Assembly (NCBI GenBank): GCA_020466095.1
Contig: CM035806.1
Coordinates: 113,541,080 to 113,605,079 of the forward strand
Direction of reading: 5' to 3'
Length of the DNA stretch: 64,000 nt
From: Chlorops oryzae
Lineage: Eukaryota > Arthropoda > Insecta > Diptera > Chloropidae
Part shown: positions 12,960 through 46,117 of the stretch, piece after piece
Layout of the letters: each line of letters begins with the position of its first letter
How positions within the stretch are numbered: the first letter of the stretch is position 1
Made by a program: the position numbers and the translations under genes
Notes under the pieces: generated by a model
Databases searched by the model: none
Seen by the model: only the letters and a program-made list of their open reading frames with translations
What the model was told of the DNA's origin: nothing

Positions 12960-14536
12960 TGTTGTGAGTCAAAAGCGTCACGTCACACTCTAACGTCACG
13001 TTACCAGCTCTAAGCGGGAAAAGTGCCAAAACATATAAAAACAATCAAAACGCAGCAGAGGAGTTCGATGACACAGCACCAAGCTCGAAATCCGACAACC
13101 TTCAGCAAGAACAACAACAACATTAGAACTCGACTACTGAGCACAATTACGTAAACAAGCATACCGATCGCCGGTACCAAAACTTGGCACAACGCCGAAC
13201 AGAGGAAAAGGCAAGCGGGGGAAAAGACGAAAGAGCACGAGCAAGCAAGTCAGCAATAAGCAACGGCATAAGCGGTTCAACGCCTTCAAAGGCAGACCTA
13301 CGTCAACAATAGAAACACAGCAATAAAGCTATTGGCAACAACAACAACAGGCGATCGAGAAGGGCAATCAACGCAACGTACGCAAGAAGTTACAAGCCGG
13401 TCAACAGAACAACAAGAGCCAGGTGCAACAACAACAAGTGCAACGTATGCACACCGGCAGGGGAAGTTCGAAGTCATACTTATGAAATCAATCAATATCC
13501 AATATTGCTAGATCGGCAATATTAATCTATTTAAGCGGAACTTCGATCTACGGAGGGGGACTTGCTGTTTGGAATCGAAAGTCTAATCAGATCTCAACTT
13601 TGTCGCACCTACTTACGAGCCAGGACGACAAAGTGCGGATCTCAGTGTAGCTAGGGATTAGGGCAGTTAAGTTAAGCCAAAATAGGATTGTCATATATAA
13701 GAAGAAAAAGGACTTCAATAAACAATAATTGTAACTGAATTTCAATGGCGTTCTTATTTGTGGTATTCGCTTAGACGTCCATCCCCAGCACGCAACATTT
13801 TAAGCCGCAGCCGGTAGGATGACACAACATTTATGGCGCAGCCGGTTTTCGACTAAGGATAGTCCGGTACGAATCACGATCCTTTTACAACAGTACGGCG
13901 TTGAAATAAACACATCACAACAAATAAACAAAAAAAAAAAATTTTTTTTGGCCACAGTGGGGTAAGATTGATATCTATTGGGTATATTTGAGTTACTTAT
14001 TGGAACCTACTGAACAGTGGTGAAACCTAATTTAGTGGGGCCTGGGCGTGAGTGAAACTTCCGAAAAGCACTTTAATGAGAAACGATATAAGTATACCGA
14101 ATTGTATCAATTACTTTGTTTTAACCCTTTTTGTACTGCACTGCTATAACCTGTCGAACAGTGGTGAAACCTAATTCGTCAGGGTCCGGGTGTGAGTGAA
14201 ACTTCCGAAGGACACTTTAGCAGCACAAACGCAATAAGGGCATAGCAGAGTACCTTAAATAATAAAAAATTTTTCATTAAAAAAATAAATAATATAAAAA
14301 TTAAACAAGCGACGCAAGTAAAAGCCGACAGCATCAAGGGACAAGAAATAAAAATCAGTTCAAAATACGCATATAGTATGGTGAGTACACAAATATGTAT
14401 ATTAATATTTTAAAATTTGTACCCCTTGCAACAGTAAATACACGACGCCACTGAACATTTTCATTTTTGACCTTGTTTTATACGGAAGATTTTTTTTTAT
14501 TTTTAAAACGGAGTCATCCGTCAAATAAAGTAATTT
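12960..14536 (+). other. 5' region of errantivirus-like Gypsy element: presumed LTR end, PBS and leader
   Basis: The stretch to about 13800 is presumed LTR, because a tRNA-Ser-type primer-binding sequence follows it: GCCGCAGCCGGTAGGATG at 13806, and TGGCGCAGCCGG again at 13832. I could not define the LTR start and found no matching 3' LTR after the env region. The leader 13990-14230 contains two diverged copies, about 145 bp apart, of a block around GAACAGTGGTGAAACCTAAT and GAGTGAAACTTCCGAA. Leaders of this retroelement group can hold regulatory or insulator repeats; whether this one does is inference. Confidence 0.5.
14378..14386 (+). promoter_or_regulatory. putative splice donor next to a leader ATG (env mRNA)
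   Basis: ATG at 14378-14380 is followed immediately by GTGAGT at 14381, a near-consensus 5' splice site. Errantivirus env is made from a spliced subgenomic RNA. The matching acceptor appears at 39696-39697, and the codon phase after it is that of the env frame. Confidence 0.5.
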
Positions 14537-15733
14537 ATGGAAAAAGAGTGCGAAGCTTTGCGACAACAACTAAAAGAATCTGAACAACACGCTAGCATCC
14601 TTCAAGCAGAAGCGTGGGAATTGATAAGAGAAGTCAACCCAAACAAAGAATCTTTATTATTAATTTCAAATCAAGTTGCACTAGCTCGGTTTAATCAACT
14701 GGAAGAAGCAGTTTTTCTCATAGAAAAAGCGAAAAATTGGGTAACCGTATCAAACGAAGTCGCCAAGGAGAAAATACAACAATTGGAAGAGACAATTGGC
14801 CATTTAAAAAAGAACTGTAAAGATTTGAGGGATCGAATCGATAAAGAGACCTTGCTGATAGAAGAATCAGAAGAGCAAAACGAATCTCTAAGAGAAGCTC
14901 TGCGGACAGCAGTAGGAAAGGACATATCGGAGTCCATAGAAAAGGACAAAGCTACTCTCAAAGAAAAGGAGAAAGAAATTCAATTTCTGAAAGTAGAAAT
15001 TGGAAACCTGAAGAGAGAATTAAGAATAGTTTGCAGTACATCTCCACTTCCCGCAAGACGTACATCAGAAAATTCCAGGACAAAGCCAATCAACGAATCA
15101 ACTTTAAAAACACCAACACAAGTACAAATACCCAAAATTCAAGTAACAATGGCAAATTCACAGAATGTTGCAGAAATTGTCAAAAATGTTCAACGTTTCG
15201 TACTATCTTTTTCCGGAGCAAGAGGACCTGAGTTTAAGGCGGACGTAATAAAATTTGTCGAGGGCATAGAATTGCTCAATTATATGATTTCCCCGGAGGA
15301 CATGAAGAAAGCCATTAAATGTATAAGGCAGCGACTGTCGGGGGCTGCGTTCAACACAATTGGCACCAAAAAATTCGAGACTCTAAATGAACTCCGCGAC
15401 TTTGTGCAACGAACATACGCAACAGTAAGAACGTTGGAAGATATTAGAGTGGATATTATAAACGGACATCAACAAACAGGTGAGTCCGCGTTGCTGTTCG
15501 GAGGTCGAATGGAAACTAACCTACAAGAGGCTGAAGAAATGATCACAAAAAAGTGGACTACGGAAGAATCAAGAGCGGCGCTATGGGAATACCAAGATCT
15601 GGCAAAAAGGCATTTCATTACGGGATTAAAGGATCATTCCCTAAAACAATCACTGATAAACATGACAGACCCAAGTTTGCGGGATCTCATAAATGCGGCA
15701 GAAAATTCCGAAAACATTTTGAAAAGAATTTGA
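14537..15733 (+). CDS. Gypsy/errantivirus-like Gag, N-terminal and capsid part
   Basis: ATG at 14537; 398 codons open. Residues 1-165 are strongly heptad-like and charged (long coiled coil, for example IQQLEETIGHLKKNCKDLRD and KEKEIQFLKVEIGNLKREL). After a Thr/Ser/Pro linker comes a capsid-like domain (about 215-395: FVLSFSGARGPEFKADVIKF, then AIKCIRQRLSGAAFNTIG). Gag assembles the particle. No zinc knuckle lies in this ORF. Its last residues (AENSENILK) meet the likely continuation at 31785 (ILKSDKLN, then zinc knuckles), so I infer that this gag was cut by the 16-kb BEL insertion and that the last codons before the stop at 15731-15733 come from the insertion. Confidence 0.75.
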   Translation: MEKECEALRQQLKESEQHASILQAEAWELIREVNPNKESLLLISNQVALARFNQLEEAVFLIEKAKNWVTVSNEVAKEKIQQLEETIGHLKKNCKDLRDRIDKETLLIEESEEQNESLREALRTAVGKDISESIEKDKATLKEKEKEIQFLKVEIGNLKRELRIVCSTSPLPARRTSENSRTKPINESTLKTPTQVQIPKIQVTMANSQNVAEIVKNVQRFVLSFSGARGPEFKADVIKFVEGIELLNYMISPEDMKKAIKCIRQRLSGAAFNTIGTKKFETLNELRDFVQRTYATVRTLEDIRVDIINGHQQTGESALLFGGRMETNLQEAEEMITKKWTTEESRAALWEYQDLAKRHFITGLKDHSLKQSLINMTDPSLRDLINAAENSENILKRI

Positions 15734-28138: not shown

Positions 28139-28377
28139 CAGTCTTATTCATAAAAAATTCGTAAAATACTGTATAAGCCCACTATAGTTAAAAAGCATTA
28201 TAAAGTTATAAAGGGTTTATAAAAGCTATCATTCATAAACGTTCTATATCTACATTTTAGCTATAAAGGGGAAAGGCCGGTTTTTATCCGAAATTTCGGC
28301 AACACTGATATGGAAATGTCAAATAGTACAAAAACAAATCGTTATTTTTGTTTTGTTTCAAAAAATTTTTACATGAA

Positions 28378-29514: not shown

Positions 29515-29522
29515 AAAATTTA

Positions 29523-30705: not shown

Positions 30706-31011
30706 TTCTTTAAAGGAACATTTCAATTACTGAAAAAATAAAAAAATGTGCTTGCCTATATTCCCAATCGTGTTAATGGTCTGGAGAGAATCCATTTTCA
30801 GATTTCACAATGCAAGAAAATTTTGTTTTTACGGATTAAGATTTTTATAAAAGGCTTATAGAAGCCTAAACAGCATTATAACTTTCAATATTTTATTAAG
30901 TCTTTATAAACCTGTTATATCTCTATAGTGCGTTTATGAATAAAATTTTAGGCAAACAGCTTTATAAACCCTTTATAAGCCTGCTATAATTTTTTATGAA
31001 TAAGACTGTTA

Positions 31012-31527
31012 AAGTTTAAGGGTTTTTTATATATTACAATATAAAAATAAAATTATAAGATTTCTTCAATATTTATGTAGTGGACTGTATTTTTATTTGA
31101 AAGAGGCTTGGGTTTTGCGAAAAGGCAAAAAAAAGAAACAAAAAAACAGCAAACCAAAACTAGTGGCATCAATAGTTCTGATGCAGTTTGTGTGCTACTT
31201 TTTTTTTGTCGGGAATATAAATATATAAAATAATTTATATTACATACAGTACCTGGAGCTTAGGGGCTTTAAACGGTGTTACCGACAACTTCAAAAAGGA
31301 GCCGAGGCATCCATACGTCCTGGCCTTGAAGCGAGAACCATTGTTGCTTGGGTTGCTCCAGATTTTGTTCTTCTTGTTGTTGTTTTTCCTCGAATATTTG
31401 TTTTGTTAATTTTTATTTTTTTTATTTTTTGTTTTTTTTGTTGCGCCGCGTTTACAGTTTTAAATTAAGGGTTTTTTGTATTTTTTTTTTAAATAAATTA
31501 AGGGTTCAAAGTAGGCTCGAAGGACCA
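31012..31527. other. internal non-coding part and truncated PBS of outer BEL-type element
   Basis: Minus strand from 31527 reads TGGTCCTTCGAGCC (14 nt of a tRNA-Tyr PBS), then an A-rich leader. No ORF of recognisable family. Confidence 0.45.
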
Positions 31528-31784
31528 TGAAAAAGACTCTGGCCTTTTAACTAAATTAAATAAAACAGATCGTTTCGGGTGCGGCAATGCGCTTAGGGTC
31601 TCGGACAACAACTGAGCCCTTTCGCTCTTTCTTCTAAGTTTCTCTTTTCTTCTTACAATGTGTTCGAGTACATTTCACGACTTATGAGTGTAACAACAAT
31701 TTGAGTGGAAAATTACATTTCATTTTGAGTTACATTTCACGTTCTTAATTTACTCTTAAATAGAAAGGGTTGCCATCGTAGACA
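31528..31784 (-). repeat. LTR (right copy, 5') of outer BEL-type element
   Basis: 257 bp, same ends as 16277-16533. Immediately right of it Gypsy gag sequence resumes (CATTTTGAAATCTGAC). Confidence 0.85.
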
Positions 31785-32440
31785 CATTTTGAAATCTGAC
31801 AAATTAAACATAAGTACTATTAATTCGGCACTACCAACAGAACTGATATGCTCATTCTGTCAACAGCAAGGACACACACGAGATGTATGTATGTGTAAGG
31901 AGAAGGAATACACCCTATTGCAAGCTGTGTGGAACGTATGGACAAGAAGAAAGTCCTAGCTGCATGAAAAACAAACAGCCAATAATGGAGGCCAGTAAGG
32001 CATCAAGGCCAACTTGCGGGAAAATACGACATATAGCTGATGATTGTTGGAGCAAGTTAAGCAGCCTATTCTGCGATAAATGTCACATTAAAGGTCATCG
32101 CACCAATAAATGTTGCGGAAAAGGGGCTACACAGTAAAACACACAACAAAGGCCAGCACAAAATAACCGTCGAGGGTCGAATAACAACAACCAAGTACAG
32201 TGTTTCCTTTGCAAAGGATTCGGGCATATAGCCAGAAACTGCCCTCAACAAGATCAGCAGAACGCGGGAAACTCCCAGCGGCCCAGTCTTGGCCAATAGA
32301 ATGGGATGCCAAAACAAAAGTAAAAGAGCGGCCAAAACCTGATCCGGGTCAAAATCAAGAACAAGGAGCAGGTCATCATAACAATAAGGAAACCACGAGT
32401 TCGGAATAAAATAAAAATACGCCAAAAGAGGTTCCCTTGG
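31785..32440 (+). pseudogene. Gypsy Gag C-terminal part with zinc knuckles, decayed
   Basis: Starts in gag frame (ILKSDKLNISTINSALPTE) and passes CSFCQQQGHTRDVC, a frameshift near 31890, a degenerate CKLCGTYGQEESPSC, a knuckle that lost its first Cys (CGKIRHIADDC), CDKCHIKGHRTNKC, and after a TAA near 32136 CFLCKGFGHIARNC. Three knuckles keep the full C-x2-C-x4-H-x4-C pattern. They would package element RNA. It probably belongs to the same gag as 14537-15733. Multiple stops make it non-functional. Confidence 0.75.
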
Positions 32441-32445
32441 ACAGC

Positions 32446-34725
32446 CTAGGAAATGGAACTTTAACCACTAAGAGATGGGGAAAGTCCAAAAGAGAAATAC
32501 CACGGAATGAGATAAAAAACGAAATCAGAGAGCGAAACATACCAACGAATAACGTCAAAAACGAAATAAGCGGAAAGATGGAAATACACTTTAATGGTGA
32601 GACCGACGAAAAGAAAATTATAAAAGAAAATAAAAAAAAGAGAGTATCTTTTAAAAATACTGTAACAGTATTCACCTACCCCGTATGCGAGATAGAAGCG
32701 GCCAGAATAAAGAATATGTTTGAAATAGGGCAAGAAAACAAAAGACTCATAAAAAGTTTGTATACAATGTTCTCCAAAGTGCGAAAAAACTGTTAACGTT
32801 TGCACATAACGGCCCACAAAGAGATGAAGACGATGAATTATCCTGTGAACAGGCTATCAACGACAGTATCAGAACGGTGGACTCACAATGCGATAGAAAC
32901 ACGCCACGATTTTCAAATTGCACTGCCATAACGGAGACTCAAGAGGATGATTCCTACATCGATATACCCTGCAATCAGGCTATCAATGGCAGCATCACCC
33001 TATTGGTCGACTCAGGATCAGATGCAAGTTTAGTGAAAAGAGAAGTCTTAAAAGAAGACGTACCAATAAATAAGGAGGACACGAAATGCTTAAGAGGAGC
33101 TTTTGGAGGAGATTCCAGTACTATTGGATCAGTGATGATTAAACATAATGCGATCCCAGCATTAAATATGGAAATGCACGTAGTGCCACGTAATAGCAGT
33201 TTGCCAGTAGAAGGTCTCCTGGGAAGAGACATGCTCTGGAACAGAACTATCTTGGACACTATTGAGAGACAGTCGACCTCCAAGGAAGGAGGCAACCTAG
33301 TGGCCAGAGTGCCATTAAAATGTGCGAGGAAAAGGATTTTTATAGCAGAAACCATAACAATCCCCCCCAGAGCGGCGGGAATAGCACGAGTAAACACAGG
33401 ACTACTCACGGAAGAAGTAGTCGTGCATAAGACAACAATTGCTACACAGGTATACCTAGGAGAGAGTCTATCTAGACCAAAGAATGGGATTGGATTCGTG
33501 ACAGTACTAAACGCCTCCGAAAAAGTTGCGGAAATAAAAGGAGGCATGGAATTAAAATACTCGCTATTGAAGGAGTATAGAATAGTTAACACGTTAGAAG
33601 TCAACGTAGTTGAGAGCGATGAGACAAATGAGAGGACAAATTTGCTAATAAATTCCTTGAAGTTGGAAGAAAATTTGAACGACGAAGAAAGACAGTCCAT
33701 GGCGAATATATGCAAGGACTATGCGGATGTTTTCCACCTAAAGGGTGACGAATTGAGTTACACCACTGTGTTCAACCACGAAATACCTACAGAGGTCAGG
33801 AAAGCACCCATAAATTCTCGGCAATATCGCCTTCCGGAGGCCCACAAGGCGGAGATAAATAAAGAGGTGGGAGAGATGTTGGACCAAGGCATAATTGCTC
33901 CAAGCAAATCACCTTGGAACGCACCAATCATTCTAGTGCCGAAAAAGGCAGGTGCAGACGGGAAAAAAAAATGGCGATTGGTGGTCGATTTTCGGCAGCT
34001 GAATGACGTAACCGTCAAGCAGGTATTTCCTATACCCCGCATTGATGAGATTCTCGACCAACTCGGTTGCAGCCGGTATTTCACAACGCTAGACCTGGCA
34101 AGCGGATACCATCAAGTGCTTGTAAACGAGAAACGCAGAGAAAAAACAGCATTCAGTACTGAAATAGGACATTACGAATTCGTAAGAATGCCATTCGGAC
34201 TCTCCGGAGCTCCGGCAACCTTTCAAAGGATTATGAATAATGTTCTGATTGGCTTGCAAGGCGTCGATTGTTTTGCTTATTTGGACGACATAGTAATTTA
34301 CGGAAGTAACCTTAAGTAGCACGAAATAAGGCTACGTAAAGTACTACAAGCCCTAAGAAGCAGCCAATTGAAAATACAAACGTAAAAATGTCAATTCTTA
34401 AGAAAGGAAGTTGTCTATTTGGGTCACAAGTGTTCCGACCAAGGCGTACGGCCGGACCCAAGTAAGGTCGAATGTGTAAAAACTTTCCCGATACCAAAAA
34501 ATAAGAAAGAATTACAAGCATTTCTTGGACTGGCAAACTACTACCGAAAATTTATTCCGAATGCAGCAGCGCTTCTTCTACCTTTGACATCACTGCTAAG
34601 AAAAGATGCCGAGTTCGTTTGGACGGAGGCATGCCAAATGGCAGTAAAAGCCATTAAAGCTGCAATAACTAGTCCACCACTGTTAAAGTATGCAGATTTC
34701 ACAAAGCCATTCATGCTAACAACGG
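32446..34725 (+). repeat. first unit of a 2,280-bp direct tandem duplication in Gypsy pol
   Basis: Every base pairs with the base 2,280 further right (34726-37005), with about four differences (near 32663, 33440, 34132 and 34413). The unit ends inside RT/RNase H coding sequence at AACGG and restarts at CTAGGAAATGG. No clear microhomology at the junction. Confidence 0.95.
32446..34725 (+). pseudogene. Gypsy pol, truncated upstream copy (protease-RT)
   Basis: An open part at 32877-34319 has the aspartic protease (ITLLVDSGSDASLV) and RT (IIAPSKSPWNAPIILVPKK, DLASGYHQV, CFAYLDDIVIYGS). TAG at 34317-34319 and TAA near 34384 break the frame, yet reading resumes in the same frame (LGHKCSDQGVRPDPSKVEC). 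Coding stops abruptly at the duplication junction before the RNase H catalytic Asp. The stops are also present in the second unit, so they predate the duplication. Confidence 0.88.
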
Positions 34726-37005
34726 CTAGGAAATGGAACTTTAACCACTAAGAGATGGGGAAAGTCCAAAAGAGAAATACCACGGAATGAGATAAAAAAC
34801 GAAATCAGAGAGCGAAACATACCAACGAATAACGTCAAAAACGAAATAAGCGGAAAGATGGAAATACACTTTAATGGTGAGACCGACGAAAAGAAAATTA
34901 TAAAAGAAAATAAAAAAAAGAGAGTATCTTTTAAAAATACTTTAACAGTATTCACCTACCCCGTATGCGAGATAGAAGCGGCCAGAATAAAGAATATGTT
35001 TGAAATAGGGCAAGAAAACAAAAGACTCATAAAAAGTTTGTATACAATGTTCTCCAAAGTGCGAAAAAACTGTTAACGTTTGCACATAACGGCCCACAAA
35101 GAGATGAAGACGATGAATTATCCTGTGAACAGGCTATCAACGACAGTATCAGAACGGTGGACTCACAATGCGATAGAAACACGCCACGATTTTCAAATTG
35201 CACTGCCATAACGGAGACTCAAGAGGATGATTCCTACATCGATATACCCTGCAATCAGGCTATCAATGGCAGCATCACCCTATTGGTCGACTCAGGATCA
35301 GATGCAAGTTTAGTGAAAAGAGAAGTCTTAAAAGAAGACGTACCAATAAATAAGGAGGACACGAAATGCTTAAGAGGAGCTTTTGGAGGAGATTCCAGTA
35401 CTATTGGATCAGTGATGATTAAACATAATGCGATCCCAGCATTAAATATGGAAATGCACGTAGTGCCACGTAATAGCAGTTTGCCAGTAGAAGGTCTCCT
35501 GGGAAGAGACATGCTCTGGAACAGAACTATCTTGGACACTATTGAGAGACAGTCGACCTCCAAGGAAGGAGGCAACCTAGTGGCCAGAGTGCCATTAAAA
35601 TGTGCGAGGAAAAGGATTTTTATAGCAGAAACCATAACAATCCCCCCCAGAGCGGCGGGAATAGCACGAGTAAACACAGGACTACTCACGGAAGAAGTAG
35701 TCGTGCATAAGACAACAACTGCTACACAGGTATACCTAGGAGAGAGTCTATCTAGACCAAAGAATGGGATTGGATTCGTGACAGTACTAAACGCCTCCGA
35801 AAAAGTTGCGGAAATAAAAGGAGGCATGGAATTAAAATACTCGCTATTGAAGGAGTATAGAATAGTTAACACGTTAGAAGTCAACGTAGTTGAGAGCGAT
35901 GAGACAAATGAGAGGACAAATTTGCTAATAAATTCCTTGAAGTTGGAAGAAAATTTGAACGACGAAGAAAGACAGTCCATGGCGAATATATGCAAGGACT
36001 ATGCGGATGTTTTCCACCTAAAGGGTGACGAATTGAGTTACACCACTGTGTTCAACCACGAAATACCTACAGAGGTCAGGAAAGCACCCATAAATTCTCG
36101 GCAATATCGCCTTCCGGAGGCCCACAAGGCGGAGATAAATAAAGAGGTGGGAGAGATGTTGGACCAAGGCATAATTGCTCCAAGCAAATCACCTTGGAAC
36201 GCACCAATCATTCTAGTGCCGAAAAAGGCAGGTGCAGACGGGAAAAAAAAATGGCGATTGGTGGTCGATTTTCGGCAGCTGAATGACGTAACCGTCAAGC
36301 AGGTATTTCCTATACCCCGCATTGATGAGATTCTCGACCAACTCGGTTGCAGCCGGTATTTCACAACGCTAGACCTGGCAAGCGGATACCATCAAGTGCT
36401 TGTAAACGAGAAAGGCAGAGAAAAAACAGCATTCAGTACTGAAATAGGACATTACGAATTCGTAAGAATGCCATTCGGACTCTCCGGAGCTCCGGCAACC
36501 TTTCAAAGGATTATGAATAATGTTCTGATTGGCTTGCAAGGCGTCGATTGTTTTGCTTATTTGGACGACATAGTAATTTACGGAAGTAACCTTAAGTAGC
36601 ACGAAATAAGGCTACGTAAAGTACTACAAGCCCTAAGAAGCAGCCAATTGAAAATACAAACGTAAAAATGTCAATTCTTAAGAAAGGAAGTTGTCTTTTT
36701 GGGTCACAAGTGTTCCGACCAAGGCGTACGGCCGGACCCAAGTAAGGTCGAATGTGTAAAAACTTTCCCGATACCAAAAAATAAGAAAGAATTACAAGCA
36801 TTTCTTGGACTGGCAAACTACTACCGAAAATTTATTCCGAATGCAGCAGCGCTTCTTCTACCTTTGACATCACTGCTAAGAAAAGATGCCGAGTTCGTTT
36901 GGACGGAGGCATGCCAAATGGCAGTAAAAGCCATTAAAGCTGCAATAACTAGTCCACCACTGTTAAAGTATGCAGATTTCACAAAGCCATTCATGCTAAC
37001 AACGG
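34726..37005 (+). repeat. second unit of the 2,280-bp tandem duplication
   Basis: Same as 32446-34725 but continuing rightwards into the complete RNase H and integrase. Confidence 0.95.
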
Positions 37006-38557
37006 ACGCGAGCAACGAAGCACTCGGTGCAGTCCTTTCGCAAGGAGAACCAGGAGAAGATCAACCGATCGCGTTCGCAAGCCGAGCATTTAGCTCAACA
37101 ATCGAAAAGGAATTCCTTGCCATTGTGTGGGCGACAAAAAATTTCCGTTGCTACCTCTTAGGCCGCCCCTTTACGGTTTACACAGACCACAAACCTCTAA
37201 AAGGCATAGCAAATCTAAAGGATCAAACATCCCGATTGGCGTGGTTCCGCCATAAGCTCTCGGAATTTGATTTCGAAATCTGTTACAAGGCTGGAAAATA
37301 TAATTTAAACGCAGACGCATTGAGCCGATTACCATATGAAAATAATCTTGTGTCAGTGGTAACAAGAGCACAAACACAGTCAAAAATAGAGCAGAGCGAT
37401 GAAAATACGGAGACAAAGAAAACCAGAGATGATTCGGAATATACAAACACCACAGATCACCCAGAGACAGAGGATTTAGCAGAATTTTTAACACAGAGAA
37501 AGGACATCGAAGAGGTGCTTAAAAATTTTCACGATGGGCCATTAGGAGGACATATGGGAGCTATAAAAACATATTTCCGCATTCGACGGCAGTACAAGTG
37601 GAACGGCATGCATAGAGAGATTCGAGACTATATAAAAAACTGCAAGAAATGCCAGCGGAATAAATGCTCAAAAGTAGAAAGAATGCCCATGGTACTCACA
37701 GAAATAGCTCATGGCCCCTTCTACAAAGTTTATATGGATATGGTAGGCCCCCTACCGGAAACGTCGAGAGGAAACAAATACATTTTAACATTTATAGACG
37801 ATTTTTCAAAATTTTTCATCTGCACAGCTATTCCGGATGCAGAGGCGGCAACAGTTGCAAAAGCTTTTTTCAACGAGATAATATCAAAATTTCAGATACC
37901 AAAGGTTTTAATAACGTATAACGGCACAAATTTTACGTCGAAATTATTTAAGGAAGTTTGCAAAATTCTTGGAATCAAGAAATCCCAAACTTCACCATAC
38001 CACCCCCAAGCCAATGGTGCTCTTGAAAGGAGTCACCGACCTCTTGCGGAATTTCTCCGAAATTTCGTCAATGAGGATGGCACAAATTGGGATGAATGGC
38101 TGCACCACGCTATGCACGTGCATAACAACACAGTGCATTCTTCCACAAAACAAACACCCTGCAAAATACTTTTTGGATTTAAAGCCGATATTCCACTTAA
38201 CCTAAAAAGAAGACCGGAGAGCCACTGTATAATGCCGACGATTTCTAAAAAATATTAAAATATCAAATCCAGCGCACCCATCAACTAGTCCGAGAGAATC
38301 AAAAAATAGCCAAAGAAAAATCCAAGAGATACTACGATAAGGGCTCAAAAGTTAGAGAATTTAAAACAGGAGACAAAGTTTGGCTAAAGAATCAAAACCG
38401 AAAAAATAAATTCTCACCTATCTGGGAAGGCCCTTATTCGATTGTATCAATTCCAACGCCGGTGAATGTAAAATTGAAAATCAAAGGAAAACAAAAAACA
38501 TTCCACAAAAACTTAATAAAACTGCACCATCAACAAATAAAGAACAGAAAAGAATAA
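34726..38557 (+). pseudogene. Gypsy pol, second copy: protease, RT, RNase H, integrase
   Basis: Protease and RT as in the first unit (stops at 36597-36599 and near 36664). The 36699-38258 frame then covers the RT thumb, RNase H (TTDASNEALGAVLSQ, TDHKPL), the integrase HHCC-like zinc region (CKKCQRNKC) and the catalytic core. The core keeps the first Asp (YMDMVGPLP) and the Glu (HPQANGALERSHRPL), but where TDxGTNF is expected the sequence is TYNGTNF, so the second catalytic Asp is lost. A frameshift near 38215 and a TAA precede the C-terminal GPY/F module (PIWEGPYSIV), which ends at 38557. The pol enzyme set of an errantivirus-like Gypsy; inactive. Confidence 0.88.
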
Positions 38558-38711
38558 GAATTCTTCCAAAGCTCGAAAATCAATAACTAAGCAGAAATCG
38601 AAAAAAAACCATAAATTTGGAATTAAAACAAAATATTTTTTTTGGCAGTATCAATTCACTGCGACCGATCAATAATTGCAGTCAAAATTTTCTAACGCAA
38701 TCAACATAAAG

Positions 38712-39524
38712 ATGACCGGATTACGAAAAATAAATTGGAAATTTGAGGGCATTAACGCCAATAACTGGTTGAATGACGATCATATCAACTCATTACTAGC
38801 ATGGATAATGAGAAAGGTCGTCGGAAAGAAAATACATGTGTTCGACACACACTTTTATGCATGCGCAACGACACAAAACAATAAATCGCAACATGAGCAA
38901 ATAACGTTGAAAGGATTCCTAAGAAGAATAAATATCTTCGACTACGAAAATCTAATAATTCCCATACACAAACACAACCACTGGATGCTTGCGATTGTGG
39001 CCTGGCCTTCAATCTACGTGCTGGACTCCCTACAGCCACATGACGCAACAAAAATAGCAGAAACACTTCGATCAATTGTACAGTGGGAAGCCGGGAAAAA
39101 ATTTCCTAAGGAAAGAACGACGTATACTGAAGCCACGATGCCACTAGTGTACCCGGAATGCAGTCAGCAACAAAACCTGAATGACTGTGGAATATACCTG
39201 TTGCGTTTTGCAGAAAAATATCGAGATGTGGTGAACACGGGAAGAGCATTCTTGCCACGAGACCCTTTCGTGGAAGACAGTAAAATCAGCAGGGACTTCA
39301 ACAATCTAATAATCGAAAATAATATGTCTCTGGCCAATTGGAGAGAAACAGAAGAAGAAAGGGAATATCAGCAGCACGAAATCCAAAAAATAAAAGCAAG
39401 CAAGGTAGCGGGAAAACGAAACTCATTCAAATTAAAATTTAAAACAAAAATATACCTTTTATCCATTTCTCGTATAGGGGATGTTAAATATAAACAATGG
39501 AAATGTATCAAATCACATGAATAA
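38712..39524 (+). CDS. ULP1/SENP-like (C48-type) cysteine protease ORF inside Gypsy element
   Basis: Intact 270-aa ORF; the first ATG of the frame is at 38712. It has all ULP1-family landmarks: WLNDDHINSLLAW (residues 19-31), the catalytic His in HKHNHWML (His90-Trp91), Asp in IYVLDSL (Asp105), the oxyanion Gln (Gln153) six residues before the nucleophile, and NDCGIYLLRF (Cys159). The length is about that of a ULP catalytic domain plus a basic tail; no signal or membrane segment. The family cleaves SUMO or related Ub-like modifiers in nucleus or cytoplasm. It lies 155 bp after pol and 69 bp before the next frame (env), with no TIRs or target duplication around it, so it appears to be an integral retroelement gene. 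Substrate and role are unknown; acting on host SUMO is inference. A captured host gene is the likeliest origin. Confidence 0.88.
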   Translation: MTGLRKINWKFEGINANNWLNDDHINSLLAWIMRKVVGKKIHVFDTHFYACATTQNNKSQHEQITLKGFLRRINIFDYENLIIPIHKHNHWMLAIVAWPSIYVLDSLQPHDATKIAETLRSIVQWEAGKKFPKERTTYTEATMPLVYPECSQQQNLNDCGIYLLRFAEKYRDVVNTGRAFLPRDPFVEDSKISRDFNNLIIENNMSLANWRETEEEREYQQHEIQKIKASKVAGKRNSFKLKFKTKIYLLSISRIGDVKYKQWKCIKSHE

Positions 39525-39678
39525 AGCATTTATAAAGCAATTTTTACGACAAATTTAGAATTCGATGACTGAATTGGGTAATAGACTTCACAATGAATAA
39601 AATTAGTTCCAAAATTGCAAAAAATTTACAATTTCATTATGCCGAAACCAATATCAATTTATGTGGATGCAAAGAGAA

Positions 39679-39697
39679 TGTTTTTTTTTCCTTACAG
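39679..39697 (+). promoter_or_regulatory. putative env splice acceptor
   Basis: A pyrimidine run (T-rich from 39681, then CCTTACAG) ends in AG at 39696-39697. The following codon is in frame with env. Errantivirus env mRNAs use a leader donor, here likely 14381. Confidence 0.6.
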
Positions 39698-41194
39698 GAG
39701 CGTGTAATAATATTGGAACTGATGGCGGCGATGGCGAGTGGCCGACTACAGATAACACCAATTACCGGACAGGTAGGTTACGTACAAGTCCACTTGAAGG
39801 AAACGGAAATCATAGAAGAATTTTATACCGTTCTACACATAATCCACCCCGAAGAAATAGTACGTGTAAAAAACATCATCAATGAATACGTCGACACAGT
39901 ACAAATAAAAAACAGGGAGTTGTTGTTGGCCGAAATTAGGTCAATTCGAACAAAACTAAGCTCAATAACACCAATGGAGCATAACCGAAATAGGCGAGGC
40001 GTAATCAACGCAGTGGGAAAAGCTTCCAACTGGCTTTTCGGCGTCATGGATGACGACGATCGGAAAGAAATTTTAGAACACTTGACATTGGCAGACAAAA
40101 ACAGTCACAACGCAATTAACGGATTAAACGAACAAATTTCGATCAACGACTATTTCAATGAAACAATAGCAACGATCAAACGATCACTAGAACAAGAAAG
40201 AAACACCTTCAATGCAGTCTTCACCACGGTCAAAAAGAATAACCACGAGGTCGCAGAACACCTGCGGTATCACGACCAGATGCTGAAACTAAAAAGTATA
40301 GAAGAAAAGGTAAGCCTGATTCAAGATAGCATCTCATCGGCGAAATATGGATTTGTACACCCAAATATCTTAACTACAGCAGAAATAGAAAAATTTAAAG
40401 TCGATTTCTACAAAATTAAATTAATCCGAGTGGGAGTGCTATCATACATAAACAATGCTTTAATTATCGTAATAAAGATTCCGAAGACATTCATGAAAAT
40501 AGAAATAAAATTACTAATCCCTCTCCCGAACGACAGCCACAGAGAATAAATAGAAAAGGAAGAAATGATAACAACAATAGACAACGTAACCTACAGTTTC
40601 ACAGAAAATGCCATACGAAAGGAATTAAAAAGGAGCAGAAATTGTGTTCTTCAGAGCACATGCAGACTTGGCTTCAACAACCAAAGATCGTTTCACTACA
40701 TAGACCAATCCACTTTATTGATAAAAAACGCGTTAAGAGAACGAATCATACAGAACTGCGACAAAAGAAATATAACAATTGAGAAAAATGTACTGATCTC
40801 ATTTGCCAATTGCTCAATCAATGATTAAAGATCAAAACTTCACCAATACACAAATCATGGTACAGGAGAAACATTTTTATCAAGAAGAACATCTTGAAGA
40901 AATCGAATTCAACAATAAAATAAGCTTCGAGGAAATCCATACAAAAACTTTCAAAAATAGGAAACTCATCAAAGAATTAACTCTGCAAAAAATATATCAT
41001 ACGGAATAAGTATCACTATAGCCATAATAACAATGGTCGGAATAATTATTCTGTATGCTTGTTTCCGGAAGCAAAGCGTAAACGTCAAAAGTAACATTAC
41101 AATGTGCGAAAGGCCCGCCATCAACAAGAGACCAAGCATCAGAACCATAAACAAACAATATAGAGAAAACGAACAAGAATCAACAAAAGTATAA
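39698..41194 (+). pseudogene. errantivirus-type envelope (Env) gene remnant
   Basis: After the acceptor the frame runs to 40549, with a furin-like cleavage site (RNRRG near 39990) followed by a fusion-peptide-like region (VINAVGKASNWLFGV). An in-frame TAA (40547-40549) is followed, same frame, by a Cys-containing part up to 40828. A frame change near 40810 leads to a Glu-rich region, and another near 40990 leads to a single hydrophobic membrane span (SITIAIITMVGIIILYAC) with a short basic tail ending at 41194. In related insect retroelements Env is a surface glycoprotein. With a stop and at least two frame changes this copy cannot make it. Confidence 0.75.
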
Positions 41195-41417
41195 AAAAAA
41201 AAGAAAACCACCCCACCAAATTCATAAAATCCCGAAAAACATAATACACACGAACGCACAAACGCATTTTTCCATTTCATTCAAAGCATACATACACATA
41301 AACACACACAAACTTCCCTGCAGTAATTCCAACTACTCTCCAACTACTCCCCAACTAGTCACAAAAATACCAGGACTACTCCCTCTTAATTTGCCAACCA
41401 ATGCTTTGAACTGTCTT
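41195..41417. other. no gene; 3' flank of Env, 3' LTR not recognised
   Basis: A/C-rich sequence. No match to the presumed 5' LTR region (12960-13800) was seen, so the Gypsy 3' end may be deleted. Confidence 0.4.
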
Positions 41418-41653
41418 TTTTAACATTGAACTGTCATTGGCAAATAACTAGTCAAGGTTTTGCTCATATGAACTAGACCTGTAGTATATACAAATGGGTC
41501 GATTTTAGGTCAATTTGTATTTTTGCATATTTTATAAAAAAAAAATATTTTTTCCTCTACGTTTTAAATTTTGTATTCTTTTTTGTTTATTTGAGTAACT
41601 TTGTTTTATAAATCTTTTTTTTAATTCTTTTTTTTTTAATTTTTTGCTTTTCT

Positions 41654-41718
41654 CCGAGCCTTGAACCTGGACCTCTGGGCTGGTAATACGGCGCTTTAAC
41701 CATCACGCTAGGCAAGCA
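41654..41718 (-). other. tRNA-like module (A/B-box-like)
   Basis: Minus strand: GCCTAGCGTGATGGTTAAAG (A-box-like), then GTCCAGGTTCAAGGCTCGG (B-box/T-arm-like) at tRNA-like spacing. The T-stem has mismatches, so it is not a functional tRNA gene. Repeated at 43164-43226. Confidence 0.5.
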
Positions 41719-41900
41719 AATTGAACTTGCTGATCAAAATGTTAACTTGAGTTTTATTTTAGATTGCTTATTTTTCCCGTTTTCGGGAAACGCCCGCATA
41801 AGGAAAAATTTTTTGTTTATTTTAAAATTAACAATTAAAAAAATTAATTTAAATTTCAAACAAAAAAACCTTAATAATTGAAAAAAAAAACAAATATTCC

Positions 41901-41973
41901 CGAACTGAGCCAGGCTCGATCCCCGTCCTTCTAGGCTGCAAGACCAAGTTCTTAACCACTCAGCCAAACCTCC
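41901..41973 (-). other. second tRNA-like module
   Basis: Minus strand: GGAGGTTTGGCTGAGTGGTT, AAGAACTTGG, then GGGGATCGAGCCTGGCTC. D-arm and T-arm consensus bases are well kept (GGCTGAGTGGTTAAG; GGATCGAGCC). Repeated at 43410-43481. Looks like a tRNA-derived promoter relic. Confidence 0.5.
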
Positions 41974-42110
41974 TTCGACAGCGCGGCGATCAAAATGCAA
42001 ACATAAAGCAGACAAGAAAATTTTTTTTTCTGCTTCGCCATCGATCTCTTTCGGAGTAACCGGCGGTGACACCGATTGAGATGCACCCAAGTCTAGACGC
42101 TCTCCAATAA

Positions 42111-42914
42111 TGAAGTTTTTTCGTAACTTCCGAAGGTAAAAGGCGTAAATGCATCGAATTCGCAACATAGGTTCACCAAGGCGAATAAAGGTGTAGGAAA
42201 ATATTTTTTTGTGGCCCGCCCACTGCCACGCCCACAAATATAAGATTTTTCGTAACTTCCGAAGTAAAAGGCGTAGAAGCTTCGAATTCGCAACATAGGT
42301 TCACCAAGGCGAATGAAAGGTGTAGGAAAAAATTTTTTTTGGCCCGCCCACTGCCACGCCCACAAAAAAGATTTTTCGTAACTTCCGAAGTAAAAGGCGT
42401 AGAAGCTTCAAATTCGCAACATAGGTTCACCAAGGCGAATGTAAAAATTGGTGTCCAGCGCAAATAAAATTTTTTACTCAGTAAAGGCACCGATCCACAT
42501 GGTCCAGCTAAGCCCACAAATATTTGCCATACAAGATTTTTCGTAACTTCCGAAGTAAAAGGCGTAGAAGCTTCGAATTCGCAACATAGGTTCACCAAGG
42601 CGAATGAAAGGTGTAGGAAAAAATTTTTTTGGCCCTGCCACTGCCATTCAGCCACAAAAAAGATTTTTCGTAACTTCGCGCAAGTATTTAAAGTGCGTAC
42701 GATTAGCTTCTAAATTTACTGCAATTCATAGGAATTCACCAAGTTGTCGAATGAACTAGCTGTAGGGAAATAATGGTCATGTTAGCCCTCCCACTGCCAT
42801 TTCGCCCACAAATAGAGAAAGCAAAAACATTATTGTGCGCTCTATTTAATTTGTCTTTTGTATTGGACGCTGGGTATTTCAAAGTCGGGCTTGACCGATC
42901 TTTAGCTTTCTTAA
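42111..42914 (-). mobile_element. mini-me-like tail: tandem about 120-bp units, with an indel-rich end
   Basis: Units with TTTTTCGTAACTTCCGAAG, GGCGTAGAAGCTTCGAATTC and CCCGCCCACTGCCACGCCC recur at about 42112, 42246, 42370, 42536 and 42663. The final GGGCTTGACCGATCTTTAGC matches the end of other mini-me copies. From about 42665 the unit is full of small insertions relative to all other copies. Confidence 0.75.
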
Positions 42915-43615
42915 TCTTTGTTTCAACATTGAACCTGTCATTGGCAAAGTTAACTAGTCACAGGTTTGCTCATATGAACTATGACCTGTAAGTATATACA
43001 AATGGGTCGATTTTAGGTCAATTTGTATTTTTGCATATTTTATGAAAAAAAAAATTATTTTTTCCTCTACGTTTTAAATTTTGTATTCTTTTTTGTTTAA
43101 TTTGAGTAACTTTGTTTTATAAATCTTTTTTTTAATTCTTTTTTTTTAATTTTTTCGCTTTTCCCGAGCCTTGAACCTGGACCTCTGGGCTGGTAATACG
43201 GCGCTTTAACCATCACGCTAGGCAAGCAAATTGAACTTGCTGATCAAAATGTTAACTTGAGTTTTATTTTAGATTGCTTATTTTTCCCGTTTTCGGGAAA
43301 CGCCCGCATAAGGAAAAATTTTTTGTTTATTTTAAAATTAACAATTAAAAAAATTAATTTAAATTTAAACAAAAAAACCTTAATAATTGAAAAAAAAAAC
43401 AAATATTCCCGACTGAGCCAGGGCTCGATCCCCGTCCTTCTAGGCTGCAAGACCAAGTTCTTAACCACTCAGCCAACCTCCTTCGACAGCGCGGCGATCA
43501 AAATGCAAACATAAAGCAGACAAGAAAATTTTTTTTTCTGCTTCGCCATCGATCTCTTTCGGAGTAACCGGCGGTGACACCGATTGAGATGCACCCAAGT
43601 CTAGACGCTCTCCAT
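42915..43615. repeat. about 0.7-kb direct repeat, right copy
   Basis: Second copy of 41418-42110 with the same two tRNA-like modules (43164-43226 and 43410-43481). Indels relative to the left copy cluster in the first about 80 bp. Confidence 0.85.
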
Positions 43616-44202
43616 ATATTTTATGGTCTAGTTGCTTATGGTCTCACCTAAGGTCGGTCGTAATTTGCAAATTGACCGCCCTATTACTACAGGGTTAATA
43701 CACACAAACACTAACAAGCTTTCTCAGGGGCACATTAACTTATACGATTTTTTTTTACTATCTTTCAAGAGCAGATTTTAAACAAACAACTTGACATTAA
43801 GCTAGAAATTATCTTGTTCAAACTTGTTCCAAAAATGAAGGAAGGGGAATAGCGTTGCAAGGGTAATATAAAAGGTAAGATTCAAAAGAAAAATTCAATA
43901 ATCAAAACTAAATTTTTCAAGCAAATGTGCACATACTTTTTGAAGAAGCATAAAGATAAAGTAATTTGAAAAGTATATGCACATATTCACACATCGAAAA
44001 AGTATTTGCATGAATATCCATTACATGCATGCACATGCTTACATATTACGACATAAGTAAATCATAAGTTTCTGAACTTATGTCGCGCGATTTACAAACC
44101 AAAGCAATTGCGCACAGAACTGTGCATACCGTTCGTGAAATTTGAGTAATCTTGCAAGTGTCGAAATAGCACTCAAAAATAAACATCATACATACATACA
44201 TA
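43616..44202. other. no gene recognised
   Basis: AT-rich sequence. A small inverted repeat (CGACATAAGT...ACTTATGTCG at about 44048-44083) is the only structure seen. Confidence 0.35.
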
Positions 44203-45460
44203 ACAGGTTGGCTGATAAGTCCCCGGTCTAACAAAGAAAAACACATTTTTTTGTCAAAATTCGTTTTTATTATTCAACATAGTTCCCTTCAAGAGCGATA
44301 CAACGATTATAACGACCTTCCAATTTTTTGATACCATTTTGGTAGTACTCCTTCGGTTTTGTCTCAAAATAGGCCTCAGTTTCGGCGATCACCTCTTCAT
44401 TGCAGCCAAATTTTTTCCCTGCGAGCATCCTTTTGAGGTCTGAGAACAAGAAAAAGTCGCTGGGGGCCAGATCTGGAGAATACGGTGGGTGGGGAAGCAA
44501 TTCGAAGCCTAATTCATGAATTTTTGCCATCGTTCTCAATGACTTGTGGCACGGTGCGTTGTCTTGGTGGAACAACACTTTTTTCTTCTTCATATGGGGC
44601 CGTTTTGCCGCGATTTCGACCTTCAAACGCTCCAATAACGACATATAATAGTCACTGTTGATGGTTTTTCCCTTCTCAAGATAATCGATAAAAATTATTC
44701 CATGCCCATCCCAAAAAACAGAGGCCATTACTTTGCCAGCGCACTTTTGAGTCTTTCCACGCTTCGGAGACGGTTCACCGATCGCTGTCCACTCAGCCGA
44801 CTGTCGATTGGACTCAGGAGTGTAGTGATAGAGCCATGTTTCATCCATTTTCACATATCGACGCAAAAACTCGGGTGTATTGCGAGTTAACAGCTGCAAA
44901 CACCGCTCAGAATCATCAACACGTTGTTGTTTTTGGTCAAATGTGAGCTCGCGCGGCACCCATTTTGCACAGAGCTTTTTCATATCCAAATATTGATGAA
45001 TGATATGACCAACACGTTCCTTTGATATCTTTAAGGCCTCTGCTATCTCGATCAACTTCATTTTACGGTCATTCAAAATCATTTTGTGAATTTTTTTGAT
45101 GTTTTCGTCGGTAACCACCTCTTTCGGGCGTCCACTGCGTTCACCGTCCTCCGTGCTCATTTCACCACGCTTGAATTTTGCATACCAATCAATTATTGTT
45201 GATTTTCCTGGGGCAGAATCCGAAAACTCATTCTCAAGCCAAGTTTTTGCTTCCACTGTATTTTTTCCCTTCAGAAAACAGTATTTTATCAAAACACGAA
45301 ATTCCTTTTTTTCCATTTTTTTCACAATAACAAAAGTTGCTTCACAAAAGACGCTCTATCTCACAAACTAATTGACTTACAGACGTCAAATTTTGACACG
45401 AATCATTTGAAGGTTGCCACTATATAAAAATAATATGCATTTAATACTAGCGACGCCATC
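44203..45460 (-). mobile_element. Himar1-like mariner, one terminal repeat missing
   Basis: The left end ACAGGTTGGCTGATAAGTCC follows TA at 44201-44202. The other terminal repeat is absent: sequence matches the second copy (52967 onwards) up to GACGCCATCTA and then switches at 45461 to a Tc1-type end. Confidence 0.9.
44270..45316 (-). CDS. Himar1-like mariner transposase, intact ORF
   Basis: 348 aa from ATG 45316 (MEKKEFRVLIKYCFLKGKN) to a stop at 44270. Length and sequence agree closely with the irritans-subfamily Himar1 transposase known from horn fly. N-terminal paired helix-turn-helix DNA-binding half; linker WVPREL; DD34D catalytic residues in MDETWLYHY, VLFHQDNAPCH and HPPYSPDLAPSDFF. 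The family performs TA-targeted cut-and-paste transposition in the nucleus. The ORF is intact, but the element lacks its 5' terminal repeat, so it could only act in trans. No promoter was identified. Near identity to a family known for horizontal transfer suggests recent arrival. Confidence 0.93.
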   Translation of the reverse strand: MEKKEFRVLIKYCFLKGKNTVEAKTWLENEFSDSAPGKSTIIDWYAKFKRGEMSTEDGERSGRPKEVVTDENIKKIHKMILNDRKMKLIEIAEALKISKERVGHIIHQYLDMKKLCAKWVPRELTFDQKQQRVDDSERCLQLLTRNTPEFLRRYVKMDETWLYHYTPESNRQSAEWTAIGEPSPKRGKTQKCAGKVMASVFWDGHGIIFIDYLEKGKTINSDYYMSLLERLKVEIAAKRPHMKKKKVLFHQDNAPCHKSLRTMAKIHELGFELLPHPPYSPDLAPSDFFLFSDLKRMLAGKKFGCNEEVIAETEAYFETKPKEYYQNGIKKLEGRYNRCIALEGNYVE

Positions 45461-46117
45461 TACAGTGTCGGACAAAACAATAGCACGAACTACACATTGT
45501 TTACAAAAATTTGAATTACGTGTACAATTATTGATGAAACTGTCATTCTTTTTTATTTCTATTAATTCATAGTATTGGTTTTGATAACCAACAGAAAAAT
45601 AAGTGCAATTTGTAAAAATAGAAGTACAGTTAAAAAAAACTGTGCCACCAGGTATAAATTGGACTCTACAAAACAAAAGCACATGAATTTAAATGCTCAT
45701 AATTTCAACAAAAAACATATAACAATAACAAATATGTAAAAAAAAAACCACTATGATGCAAAACAATTGCAGGCTGAGAATTTGAAAACCAAAACAAATA
45801 ATTTCACTGTCAATATTAGTCGTTGGTGATCTTTGATTGAACCTACAAGACTATCAAGCCATAAGTTTCTTAAAATGTGGCAAAATAAATATTCGGCTGT
45901 GTTTAGAGAAAAAATTGTAGTGGAATACAACAAGGGCGAGCCAATTACTAGTATTGCTAAAAAATTTAGTGTTCATCACAGCGTAGTTTCGCGAACAATA
46001 TCACGTTTTCGTTCCACTGGCTCCCTTGAAACTTTCCATAGAGGTGGCAGACCTCGGAAAACAACGTAACGCCAAGATAAGGCAATCATAAGGGCTATAA
46101 AAAAAGATCCCTTTATA

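What the first reader, a model, noticed from the sequence alone, without database searches (positions are those of the whole stretch)
38712..39524. ULP1/SENP-like SUMO-protease ORF embedded between pol and env of an errantivirus-like Gypsy element
Seen: a 270-aa intact frame with WLNDDHIN, His90-Trp91, Asp105, Gln153 and Cys159 (NDCG) in ULP1 order and spacing, closely packed between integrase and env with no TIR or TSD around it. Known: ULP-like genes ride in some DNA transposons (for example MULE relatives). I know of no standard errantivirus map with one. Inferred: a captured deSUMOylase could counter SUMO-dependent piRNA silencing or process element proteins. Its frame is intact while pol and env are broken.
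Basis: partly seen in the sequence, partly recalled or inferred. Interest (0 to 1): 0.92.

Follow-up and report, generated by a model that had tools for sequence, protein, structure and literature searches.

The report
SUMO protease in retrovirus-like elements
A group of retrovirus-like jumping elements in an animal genome carries its own gene for a SUMO-protease-like enzyme, kept intact by selection and placed in three different positions, which may let the elements loosen the host's SUMO-dependent silencing.

Summary
Window 38712-39524 is an intact 270-aa Ulp1/SENP-type protease (Peptidase_C48, E 1.6e-13) between integrase and Baculo_F-type env of a broken errantivirus-like Gypsy provirus. 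It is no one-off: the genome holds 143 matches. Of 58 loci fetched, 50 are 'family A', and 47 of these have integrase upstream and env downstream. Between subfamilies dN/dS is 0.09-0.18; 43 of 47 long frames keep all four catalytic residues. Two more families carry homologous ULPs elsewhere: B after env, C after env in antisense with an apparent intron. In one provirus each of A, B and C the ULP lies between LTRs with 4-bp target duplications; identical or near-identical LTRs in A and B mean recent insertion. The ULP is swapped between elements like a cassette. B also has a tyrosine phosphatase behind integrase. Most likely this is an accessory SUMO protease acting on host silencing factors; activity and target are inferred. 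Host ULP genes and ULP-less relatives could not be searched (server failure), so the origin is open.

The parts
12960..13829 (+). probable 5' LTR of the window's element
   Evidence: TGTTGTGAGT at 12960 is the LTR start of the A2 and C proviruses (the 10-mer also occurs once elsewhere in the window, 50687 on the minus strand); 13533-13685 is 86% identical to the A2 LTR; ACAACA end and primer-site-like GGCGCAGCCGG at 13835. Start and end placed by motif only.
13834..13845 (+). primer-binding-site-like sequence TGGCGCAGCCGG
   Evidence: GGCGCAGCCGG also lies directly after the 5' LTR in the A2, B and C proviruses
14378..14387 (+). leader ATG followed at once by a splice donor (ATG|GTGAGTA)
   Evidence: the A2 relative has ATG|GTAAGTA at the like place in its leader; spliced use is inferred
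14537..15733 (+). gag, 5' part
   Evidence: 54% identical over 396 aa to the gag frame of the A2 element L012
15725..31783 (.). nest of other transposons inserted in gag (not part of the element)
   Evidence: flanked by an 11-bp direct repeat ACATTTTGAAA at 15714-15724 and 31784-31794; contains BEL/Pao-like and other frames (kinds recognised by eye)
31795..32445 (+). gag, 3' part with zinc-knuckle-like repeats
   Evidence: read by eye from the sequence; no frame of 150 aa or more is listed there
32446..37005 (+). tandem duplication of 2280 bp of pol (32446-34725 and 34726-37005), 99.8% identical
   Evidence: self-comparison
35157..36599 (+). pol: aspartyl protease and reverse transcriptase frame (first copy at 32877-34319)
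   Evidence: RVP 8.9e-5, RVT_1 1.9e-22
36699..38258 (+). pol: RNase H and integrase frame
   Evidence: RT_RNaseH_2 1e-29, Integrase_H2C2 8.7e-20, rve 1.3e-15
38258..38557 (+). integrase C-terminal tail in a shifted frame
   Evidence: translation
38631..38681 (+). two candidate splice acceptors before the ULP (AG ending at 38648 and at 38681)
   Evidence: the second is in frame with the leader ATG in the 3 loci of the window's subfamily that were scanned, but not in all subfamilies: weak
38712..39524 (+). ULP: Ulp1/SENP-type cysteine protease, 270 aa, catalytic H90 D105 Q153 C159, plus a C-terminal extension (about 180-270)
39681..39697 (+). env splice acceptor (T-rich tract then CAG)
   Evidence: a like tract and CAG is seen in 12 of the 14 family A loci printed; the rows of L034 and L052 begin at an internal stop of the ULP and do not reach the place
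39698..40549 (+). env, Baculo_F type, N-terminal half
   Evidence: PF12259 6.3e-10 for the frame 39593-40549
40550..41194 (+). env remainder in broken frames (by eye); no 3' LTR recognised in the window

Best explanation
The ULP is an accessory gene of a lineage of env-bearing Gypsy elements. It was captured from a cellular or transposon SENP/Ulp1-type gene, is maintained by purifying selection during the elements' own replication, and is passed between element subfamilies by recombination. Its product most likely removes SUMO from host nuclear proteins, and by doing so weakens SUMO-dependent transcriptional silencing (piRNA/SetDB1 type) of the element in the germline. Shown here: the domain, the conserved position, the inclusion between LTRs, the selection, the catalytic residues, the cassette exchange. 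Inferred: the capture event, the enzymatic activity, the SUMO preference, the target and the benefit.
For: 143 matches in the genome; integrase upstream and env downstream in 47 of 50 fetched family A loci. dN/dS 0.09-0.18 between subfamilies, Fisher p from 2e-14 to 8e-34 for five pairs at dS 0.4-2. 43 of 47 long frames keep H, D, Q and C; the 4 others are single copies. ULP inside LTRs with 4-bp target duplications in one provirus each of A2 (632 of 632 LTR bases identical), B (498 aligned bases identical, one terminal difference) and C (98.1%). Six A2 copies are 99.5-99.9% identical over 4.8 kb, all six with a full 271-aa ULP frame. Homologous ULPs in three positions. Fold nearest to SENP1/SENP7/SENP5. 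Pathway precedent: Su(var)2-10, a SUMO ligase, has been proposed to link Piwi to SetDB1 (PMC7272611, passages); in yeast the Nup84 complex restrains Ty1 transcription through tethering of Ulp1, and its loss leads to massive Ty1 retrotransposition (PMC8585004, abstract).
Against: No activity, expression or localisation data. The model is of middling confidence (best pLDDT 74.5, the five models 46.6 to 74.5; TM-scores about 0.5). Around the window's copy dN/dS is 0.6-1.2. Whether the family A ULP mRNA is spliced is unclear. ULP amino-acid identity falls faster than integrase and env in the widest family A pair (51% against 74% and 64% for L001-L049), which fits an arms race but also looser constraint. 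The host's own ULP genes and ULP-less relatives could not be searched.
Confidence: 0.5

Rival explanations
1. The ULP is a processing protease for the element's own proteins, as adenain-type and poxvirus core proteases of the same clan are for virions.
For: Same protease clan (recalled). Of the five viral-library matches at E <= 0.001 two are named and both are poxviral, one called virion core cysteine protease; mpox core protease also appears among the solved structures (2.1e-5). The gene sits beside env in A and B.
Against: These elements keep an aspartyl protease in pol (window; family B frame L063 by eye). Structure and sequence matches are far stronger to SENPs (6.6e-11; 3e-28 for SENP7 with the alignment) than to viral proteins (best 4.8e-6, unnamed). 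The position moves around env and even to the other strand, which suits a free-standing regulator better.
Confidence: 0.12
2. The ULP acts on SUMO (or ubiquitin) but at another step: stabilising the element's own modified proteins, easing nuclear entry or integration site access, or damping the host's DNA-damage response at integration.
For: Ulp1 and OTU domains recur in DNA transposons, and a role in DNA repair after transposition has been proposed for them (PMC2836005, passages). Bacterial effectors of the clan that act on host ubiquitin or SUMO, such as XopD, also match the fold (8e-7).
Against: Nothing in the data separates this from the anti-silencing reading.
Confidence: 0.25
3. The window ULP is an independent later insertion or a host pseudogene, unrelated to the provirus.
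For: None left after the genome search, except that families B and C place the gene elsewhere.
Against: Conserved pol-ULP-env order, LTR enclosure, amplification with the element.
Confidence: 0.01
4. Selection on the ULP is a by-product of host use: some copies were domesticated as host genes and the rest are passengers.
For: In the segments compared, the ULP is intact in 34 of 49 loci, integrase in 23 of 43 and env in 30 of 44; 9 of 50 loci have integrase broken with ULP and env intact, and 4 have both neighbours broken.
Against: The loci were picked by ULP match and the ULP segment is the shortest, both of which bias those counts. Integrase and env show the same low dN/dS in the same pairs. 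Five of the six young A2 copies have all three segments intact (L010, L012-L015; L011 has integrase broken).
Confidence: 0.07

Closest known systems
Ginger1 DNA transposons (PMC2836005; passages read)
   Same: A Gypsy-type integrase-like enzyme and a Ulp1 (or OTU) protease domain in one mobile element.
   Different: Ginger1 is a cut-and-paste DNA transposon with terminal inverted repeats; its Ulp1 is the C-terminal domain of the transposase. Here the element has LTRs, RT, gag and env, and the ULP is a separate gene.
Mutator-type elements with ULP genes (named in passages of PMC2836005; the name KAONASHI is recalled)
   Same: ULP-type protease carried and amplified by a transposon.
   Different: DNA transposons (hydra, lancelet and several plants are named there); no RT, no env (recalled).
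Bdelloid rotifer LTR retrotransposons with captured ORF3 (PMC5408684; passages)
   Same: Enzyme genes (GDSL esterase, DEDDy exonuclease) captured as an ORF3 and shared between unrelated retroelements.
   Different: No 'sumo' or 'ulp1' in the text (0 hits); a passage says their intragenomic evolution shows no significant departure from neutrality.
Orchid Ty3/Gypsy elements with an AlkB-type RNA demethylase (PMC9289625; abstract and outline)
   Same: Gypsy elements with an extra enzyme proposed to bear on host control.
   Different: Plant, other enzyme, no env mentioned in the abstract.
Errantiviruses of flies such as gypsy, ZAM and 17.6 (recalled)
   Same: gag-pol-env with an F-type env, spliced env, tRNA-primed LTRs.
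   Different: No ULP or tyrosine phosphatase in the standard maps that I recall.
SENP7-type and SENP1/2-type SUMO proteases
   Same: Catalytic domain, fold and residues.
   Different: Lacks the long insertion of SENP7 between the two matched stretches. Carries a C-terminal extension shared by families A, B and C that the sequence matches to SENPs do not reach (they end at residue 164-178).

Membership tests
Ulp1/SENP cysteine protease (Peptidase_C48) | Profile match above the curated cut-off | tested here: met
   51.5 bits against 20.7; four further ULPs (L010, L049 of A; L051 of B; L053 of C) 57.5-65.3 bits
Ulp1/SENP cysteine protease (Peptidase_C48) | His-Asp-Gln-Cys catalytic set | tested here: met
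   present in the window, invariant in 8 of 8 aligned representatives, complete in 43 of 47 long frames
Ulp1/SENP cysteine protease (Peptidase_C48) | SENP-like fold | tested here: met
   Foldseek best hits SENP1, SENP7, SENP5; model pLDDT 74.5
Ulp1/SENP cysteine protease (Peptidase_C48) | Cleaves SUMO | not testable with these tools
   needs an enzyme assay
Errantivirus-like Gypsy (Ty3) element | Gag, aspartyl protease, RT, RNase H, integrase in that order | tested here: met
   window: pol domains, gag by similarity to the A2 gag; integrase upstream in one provirus each of B and C
Errantivirus-like Gypsy (Ty3) element | F-type env downstream | tested here: met
   Baculo_F 6.3e-10; family B env matches Pfam Gypsy 6.9e-20 and Baculo_F 3.4e-7
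Errantivirus-like Gypsy (Ty3) element | LTR pair, 4-bp target duplication, primer site and purine tract | tested here: met
   met for one provirus each of A2, B, C; the window's own copy shows only a probable 5' LTR
Errantivirus-like Gypsy (Ty3) element | RT phylogeny within the errantivirus clade | not tested
   no tree with named errantiviruses was built
Ginger1 DNA transposon | Terminal inverted repeats, no RT, Ulp1 fused to the transposase | tested here: not met
   LTRs and RT present, ULP a separate frame; no inverted repeat of 60 nt or more in 28000-46000
Mutator-like element with ULP | MULE transposase beside the ULP | tested here: not met
   neighbours are integrase and env in 47 of 50 family A loci; no transposase profile other than a weak DDE_Tnp_1 match (0.011, below cut-off) in the window's neighbouring frames

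The most novel reading that the evidence does not exclude
A lineage of animal retrovirus-like elements has evolved a tool-kit of enzymes against host signalling and silencing: a SUMO protease that is swapped as a cassette and expressed in three ways (between pol and env, after env, or as a spliced antisense gene with its own intron), and, in one family, a tyrosine phosphatase fused to the integrase. The SUMO protease lifts SUMO-dependent piRNA/heterochromatin silencing.
Probability: 0.3. Interest if true: 0.95.

Novelty: new variant of a known kind. Interest (0 to 1): 0.82.

Why it matters
SUMO-dependent heterochromatin formation is a step of transposon silencing in flies (PMC7272611), yet I recall hardly any element-encoded antagonist of it. 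A SUMO protease carried by env-bearing LTR elements, under selection and in three arrangements, would make the arms race between piRNA silencing and endogenous retroviruses directly testable with a single purified protein. The antisense, intron-bearing version also shows how a retroelement can keep an intron through reverse transcription, since its splice sites are not on the genomic RNA strand.

Tried and rejected
Chance ORF or mis-reading: rejected. Late independent insertion: rejected. Ginger or MULE fragment: rejected by LTR, RT and env context.

No relative of the ULP was found outside the genome: protein database with one sequence (352 candidates, none at E <= 0.001) and with eight (2674 candidates, none), viral contigs twice (2 stretches: 47 stretches, none confirmed), prokaryote genome contigs (35 stretches, none confirmed). 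The contig collections are viral or prokaryotic, and the protein search needs shared exact words and like length, so this is weak evidence of rarity.

Host ULP genes (family PF02902), copies without a ULP (env query) and the genome-wide phosphatase count could not be obtained: the genome search answered once and then reported 'busy or cannot be reached' at every later try (before the answer also 9, 12, 17). The origin of the ULP is therefore open.

LTRs of element L012 could not be paired, because a mariner-like frame lies where the 5' LTR was expected (kind recognised by eye); another A2 copy (L014) was used. A conserved splice acceptor for the ULP of family A was looked for in 15 loci and is not convincing. 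Tree disagreement was judged by eye, without a test.

Full report
WHAT IS IN THE WINDOW. The frame at 38712-39524(+) encodes 270 aa with a Peptidase_C48 domain at E 1.6e-13. Sequence comparison with solved structures gives 17 matches at E <= 0.01, all SENP/Ulp1-type, best SENP7; with an eight-member alignment SENP7 rises to 3e-28. His90, Trp91, Asp105, Gln153 and Cys159 are present. The AlphaFold2 model (best pLDDT 74.5, other models down to 46.6) is nearest to SENP1, SENP7 and SENP5; bacterial effectors such as XopD (8e-7) and the mpox core protease (2.1e-5) follow at lower rank. The best viral-library match is weaker (4.8e-6, unnamed); two of the five at E <= 0.001 are named, both poxviral.

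Around it lies one broken Gypsy provirus. RNase H and integrase are at 36699-38258, with the integrase tail frame-shifted to about 38557, and a Baculo_F-type env begins at the splice acceptor ending at 39697. pol holds a 2280-bp tandem duplication at 99.8% identity. A gag frame at 14537-15733 is 54% identical to the gag of an A2 relative, a primer-site motif lies at 13835 and an LTR-like stretch at 12960-13829. A 16-kb nest of other transposons splits gag, flanked by an 11-bp direct repeat. No 3' LTR was recognised.

IT IS NOT A ONE-OFF. The genome (442 Mb, unnamed; three large contigs among 1044; the transposon content and env type suggest an insect, which is inference) gave 143 ULP matches, from 100% to 33% identity, only 142 of 751 candidates having been scored. 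I fetched 58 loci (L001-L058), chosen by rank and to sample the subfamilies. Fifty belong to family A (43-100% identity by tblastn), three to family B (L051, L057, L058) and five to family C (L050, L053-L056). In family A, integrase lies upstream on the same strand in 49 of 50 and env downstream in 47 of 50 (matches of 40 bits or more; the window's own copy counted as L001); L017 lacks both, L019 and L047 lack env within the fetched 2 kb, and some matches are partial, such as L018, L022 and L034. A few loci are on small contigs and may be duplicates of one insertion.

THREE ARRANGEMENTS. Family A: pol, ULP, env. Family B: env, then ULP about 300 nt downstream on the same strand in L051, which has a 458-aa env frame; the ULP is 267 aa in two of three loci and frame-shifted in L057. 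Family C: the ULP lies downstream of env on the opposite strand (L053-L056; L050 is rearranged, with env pieces on both sides). In family C the ATG is followed at once by GTAAGC, and a 60-nt intron ending in CTAG brings the ATG into frame with the protease, giving 280 aa; the pattern fits 4 of 5 loci, and the fifth (L056) reads TTTTAG there and was missed by the pattern. Splicing itself is inferred. A spliced antisense gene is a setting in which an intron survives reverse transcription of the sense RNA. One provirus each of B and C was checked upstream, and both have integrase. ULPs of A, B and C share 31-40% identity, and the B-C alignment runs through the C-terminal extension to the last residues, whereas SENP sequence matches end at residue 164-178. 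I infer common descent of the element ULPs; host ULPs were not available to test it.

INSIDE THE PROVIRUS. For one provirus per family I compared end stretches. A2 (L014): LTRs of 632 bp, identical, target duplication CCAC. B (L058): LTRs of about 500 bp, 498 aligned bases identical and one terminal difference, GCCC. C (L053): 585 and 576 bp, 98.1% (2 mismatches and a 9-bp gap), AACC. All three have a GGGGAGGGA-type purine tract and a GGCGCAGCCGG primer motif. The ULP lies between the LTRs in each. Six A2 loci are 99.5-99.9% identical over 4.8 kb and all six have the full 271-aa ULP frame, so ULP-bearing elements moved recently.

SELECTION. Pairwise NG86 on long ULP frames gives dN/dS 0.098 (L035-L033, dS 0.67), 0.18 (L020-L035), 0.12 (L035-L045), 0.14 (L035-L037) and 0.11 (L001-L010, dS 1.95, near saturation), with Fisher p from 2e-14 to 8e-34 (codon sites taken as independent). 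Within subfamilies the ratio is mostly higher, 0.6-1.2 around the window's copy and 0.3-0.5 in the L020 group, though 0.10 for L035-L039 and 0.21 for L037-L046; many copies being dead would explain the high values. Integrase and env show similar constraint in the same pairs. Of 47 long frames 43 keep all four catalytic residues; L019, L023, L032 and L033 have lost one or more. In the segments compared, the ULP is intact in 34 of 49 loci, integrase in 23 of 43 and env in 30 of 44, a count biased by picking loci through the ULP.

A CASSETTE. Divergence differs along the element. Between L001 and L020, L035 or L033, integrase dS is 0.14-0.17 while ULP dS is 2.5 or saturated and env is saturated. 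Between L035 and L033, integrase and env dS are 0.13 and 0.15 but ULP 0.70. Between L035 and L045, ULP dS is 0.62 but integrase 1.4 and env 3.2. Trees of the three segments for the 43 loci that hold at least half of each disagree accordingly, by eye. I conclude that the ULP is exchanged between elements, alone or with env.

EXPRESSION. The leader has ATG|GTGAGTA in the window and ATG|GTAAGTA in A2, and a T-rich CAG precedes env in 12 of 14 loci printed, after which env opens in frame with such an ATG in the rows I read by eye, so a spliced env message is likely. For the family A ULP the candidate acceptors in 15 loci are weak and not all in frame; it has its own ATG.

A SECOND CAPTURED ENZYME. 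In the family B provirus of L058 the integrase frame runs on into a tyrosine phosphatase domain (PF00102, 2.2e-71) with an HCAAGIGRT active-site loop (motif recalled), nearest to LAR-type receptor phosphatases among solved structures. It was found at the expected distance in 3 of 5 family B loci (L059, L073, L076); the 1-kb stretches L074 and L075, placed by arithmetic, gave no match. The protein database holds another protein with integrase and phosphatase domains (P0004) and proteins with integrase and a Macro domain (P0008 and others, by their Pfam columns), so capture of such enzymes is wider than this genome.

HOW IT MOST LIKELY WORKS. [quoted passage not shown] In yeast the Nup84 complex restrains Ty1 transcription through tethering of Ulp1, and its loss leads to massive Ty1 retrotransposition (PMC8585004, abstract). 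An element-borne SUMO protease would fit as an anti-silencing factor. Activity, substrate and benefit are inference. Rivals are processing of element proteins, another SUMO-dependent step, or host use.

WHAT IS KNOWN. Ulp1 domains occur in Ginger1 and Mutator-type DNA transposons (PMC2836005, passages). LTR elements with other captured enzymes are known from rotifers (PMC5408684, passages) and orchids (PMC9289625, abstract and outline). I found no report of a Ulp1/SENP gene in an env-bearing Gypsy element in the searches, nor of a phosphatase; I judged from listings (some cut to the best 10-30), except for the papers named, and one survey of insect endogenous retroviruses (PMC12992720) has no 'sumo' and no 'accessory' in its text. 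The library lacks most subscription journals.

Noticed in passing
L059 1141-1938; also L073, L076: Protein tyrosine phosphatase domain fused behind the integrase of the family B element; a public protein (P0004) also has both domains.
   Followed up: partly
P0008, P0010, P0014, P0049: Public proteins combining a Gypsy-type integrase with a Macro domain (PF01661, by their Pfam columns), another possible captured signalling enzyme.
   Followed up: no
L050, L053-L056: Antisense ULP with an apparent 60-nt intron directly after the ATG, convergent to env.
   Followed up: partly
window 32446-37005: 2280-bp tandem duplication inside pol at 99.8% identity; a young duplication or an assembly artefact.
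   Followed up: no
window 16263-16533 and 31514-31784: 271-bp direct repeat, 98.5% identical, inside the nest that splits gag; the right copy ends at the nest's border.
   Followed up: no
window 41414-42109 and 42915-43618: 710-bp direct repeats around a satellite-like array that also occurs near 47.3-48.1 and 59.3-61.2 kb.
   Followed up: no
G000:C1:95480525-95486371: Two ULP matches of 40% identity 5.3 kb apart on the same strand with equal scores and one stop each; tandem duplication or other arrangement, not read.
   Followed up: no
L012 and L061, between env and 3' LTR: Roughly 2.4 kb between the estimated env end and the 3' LTR of the A2 element; the longest frame listed in L061 is 97 aa.
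   Followed up: no
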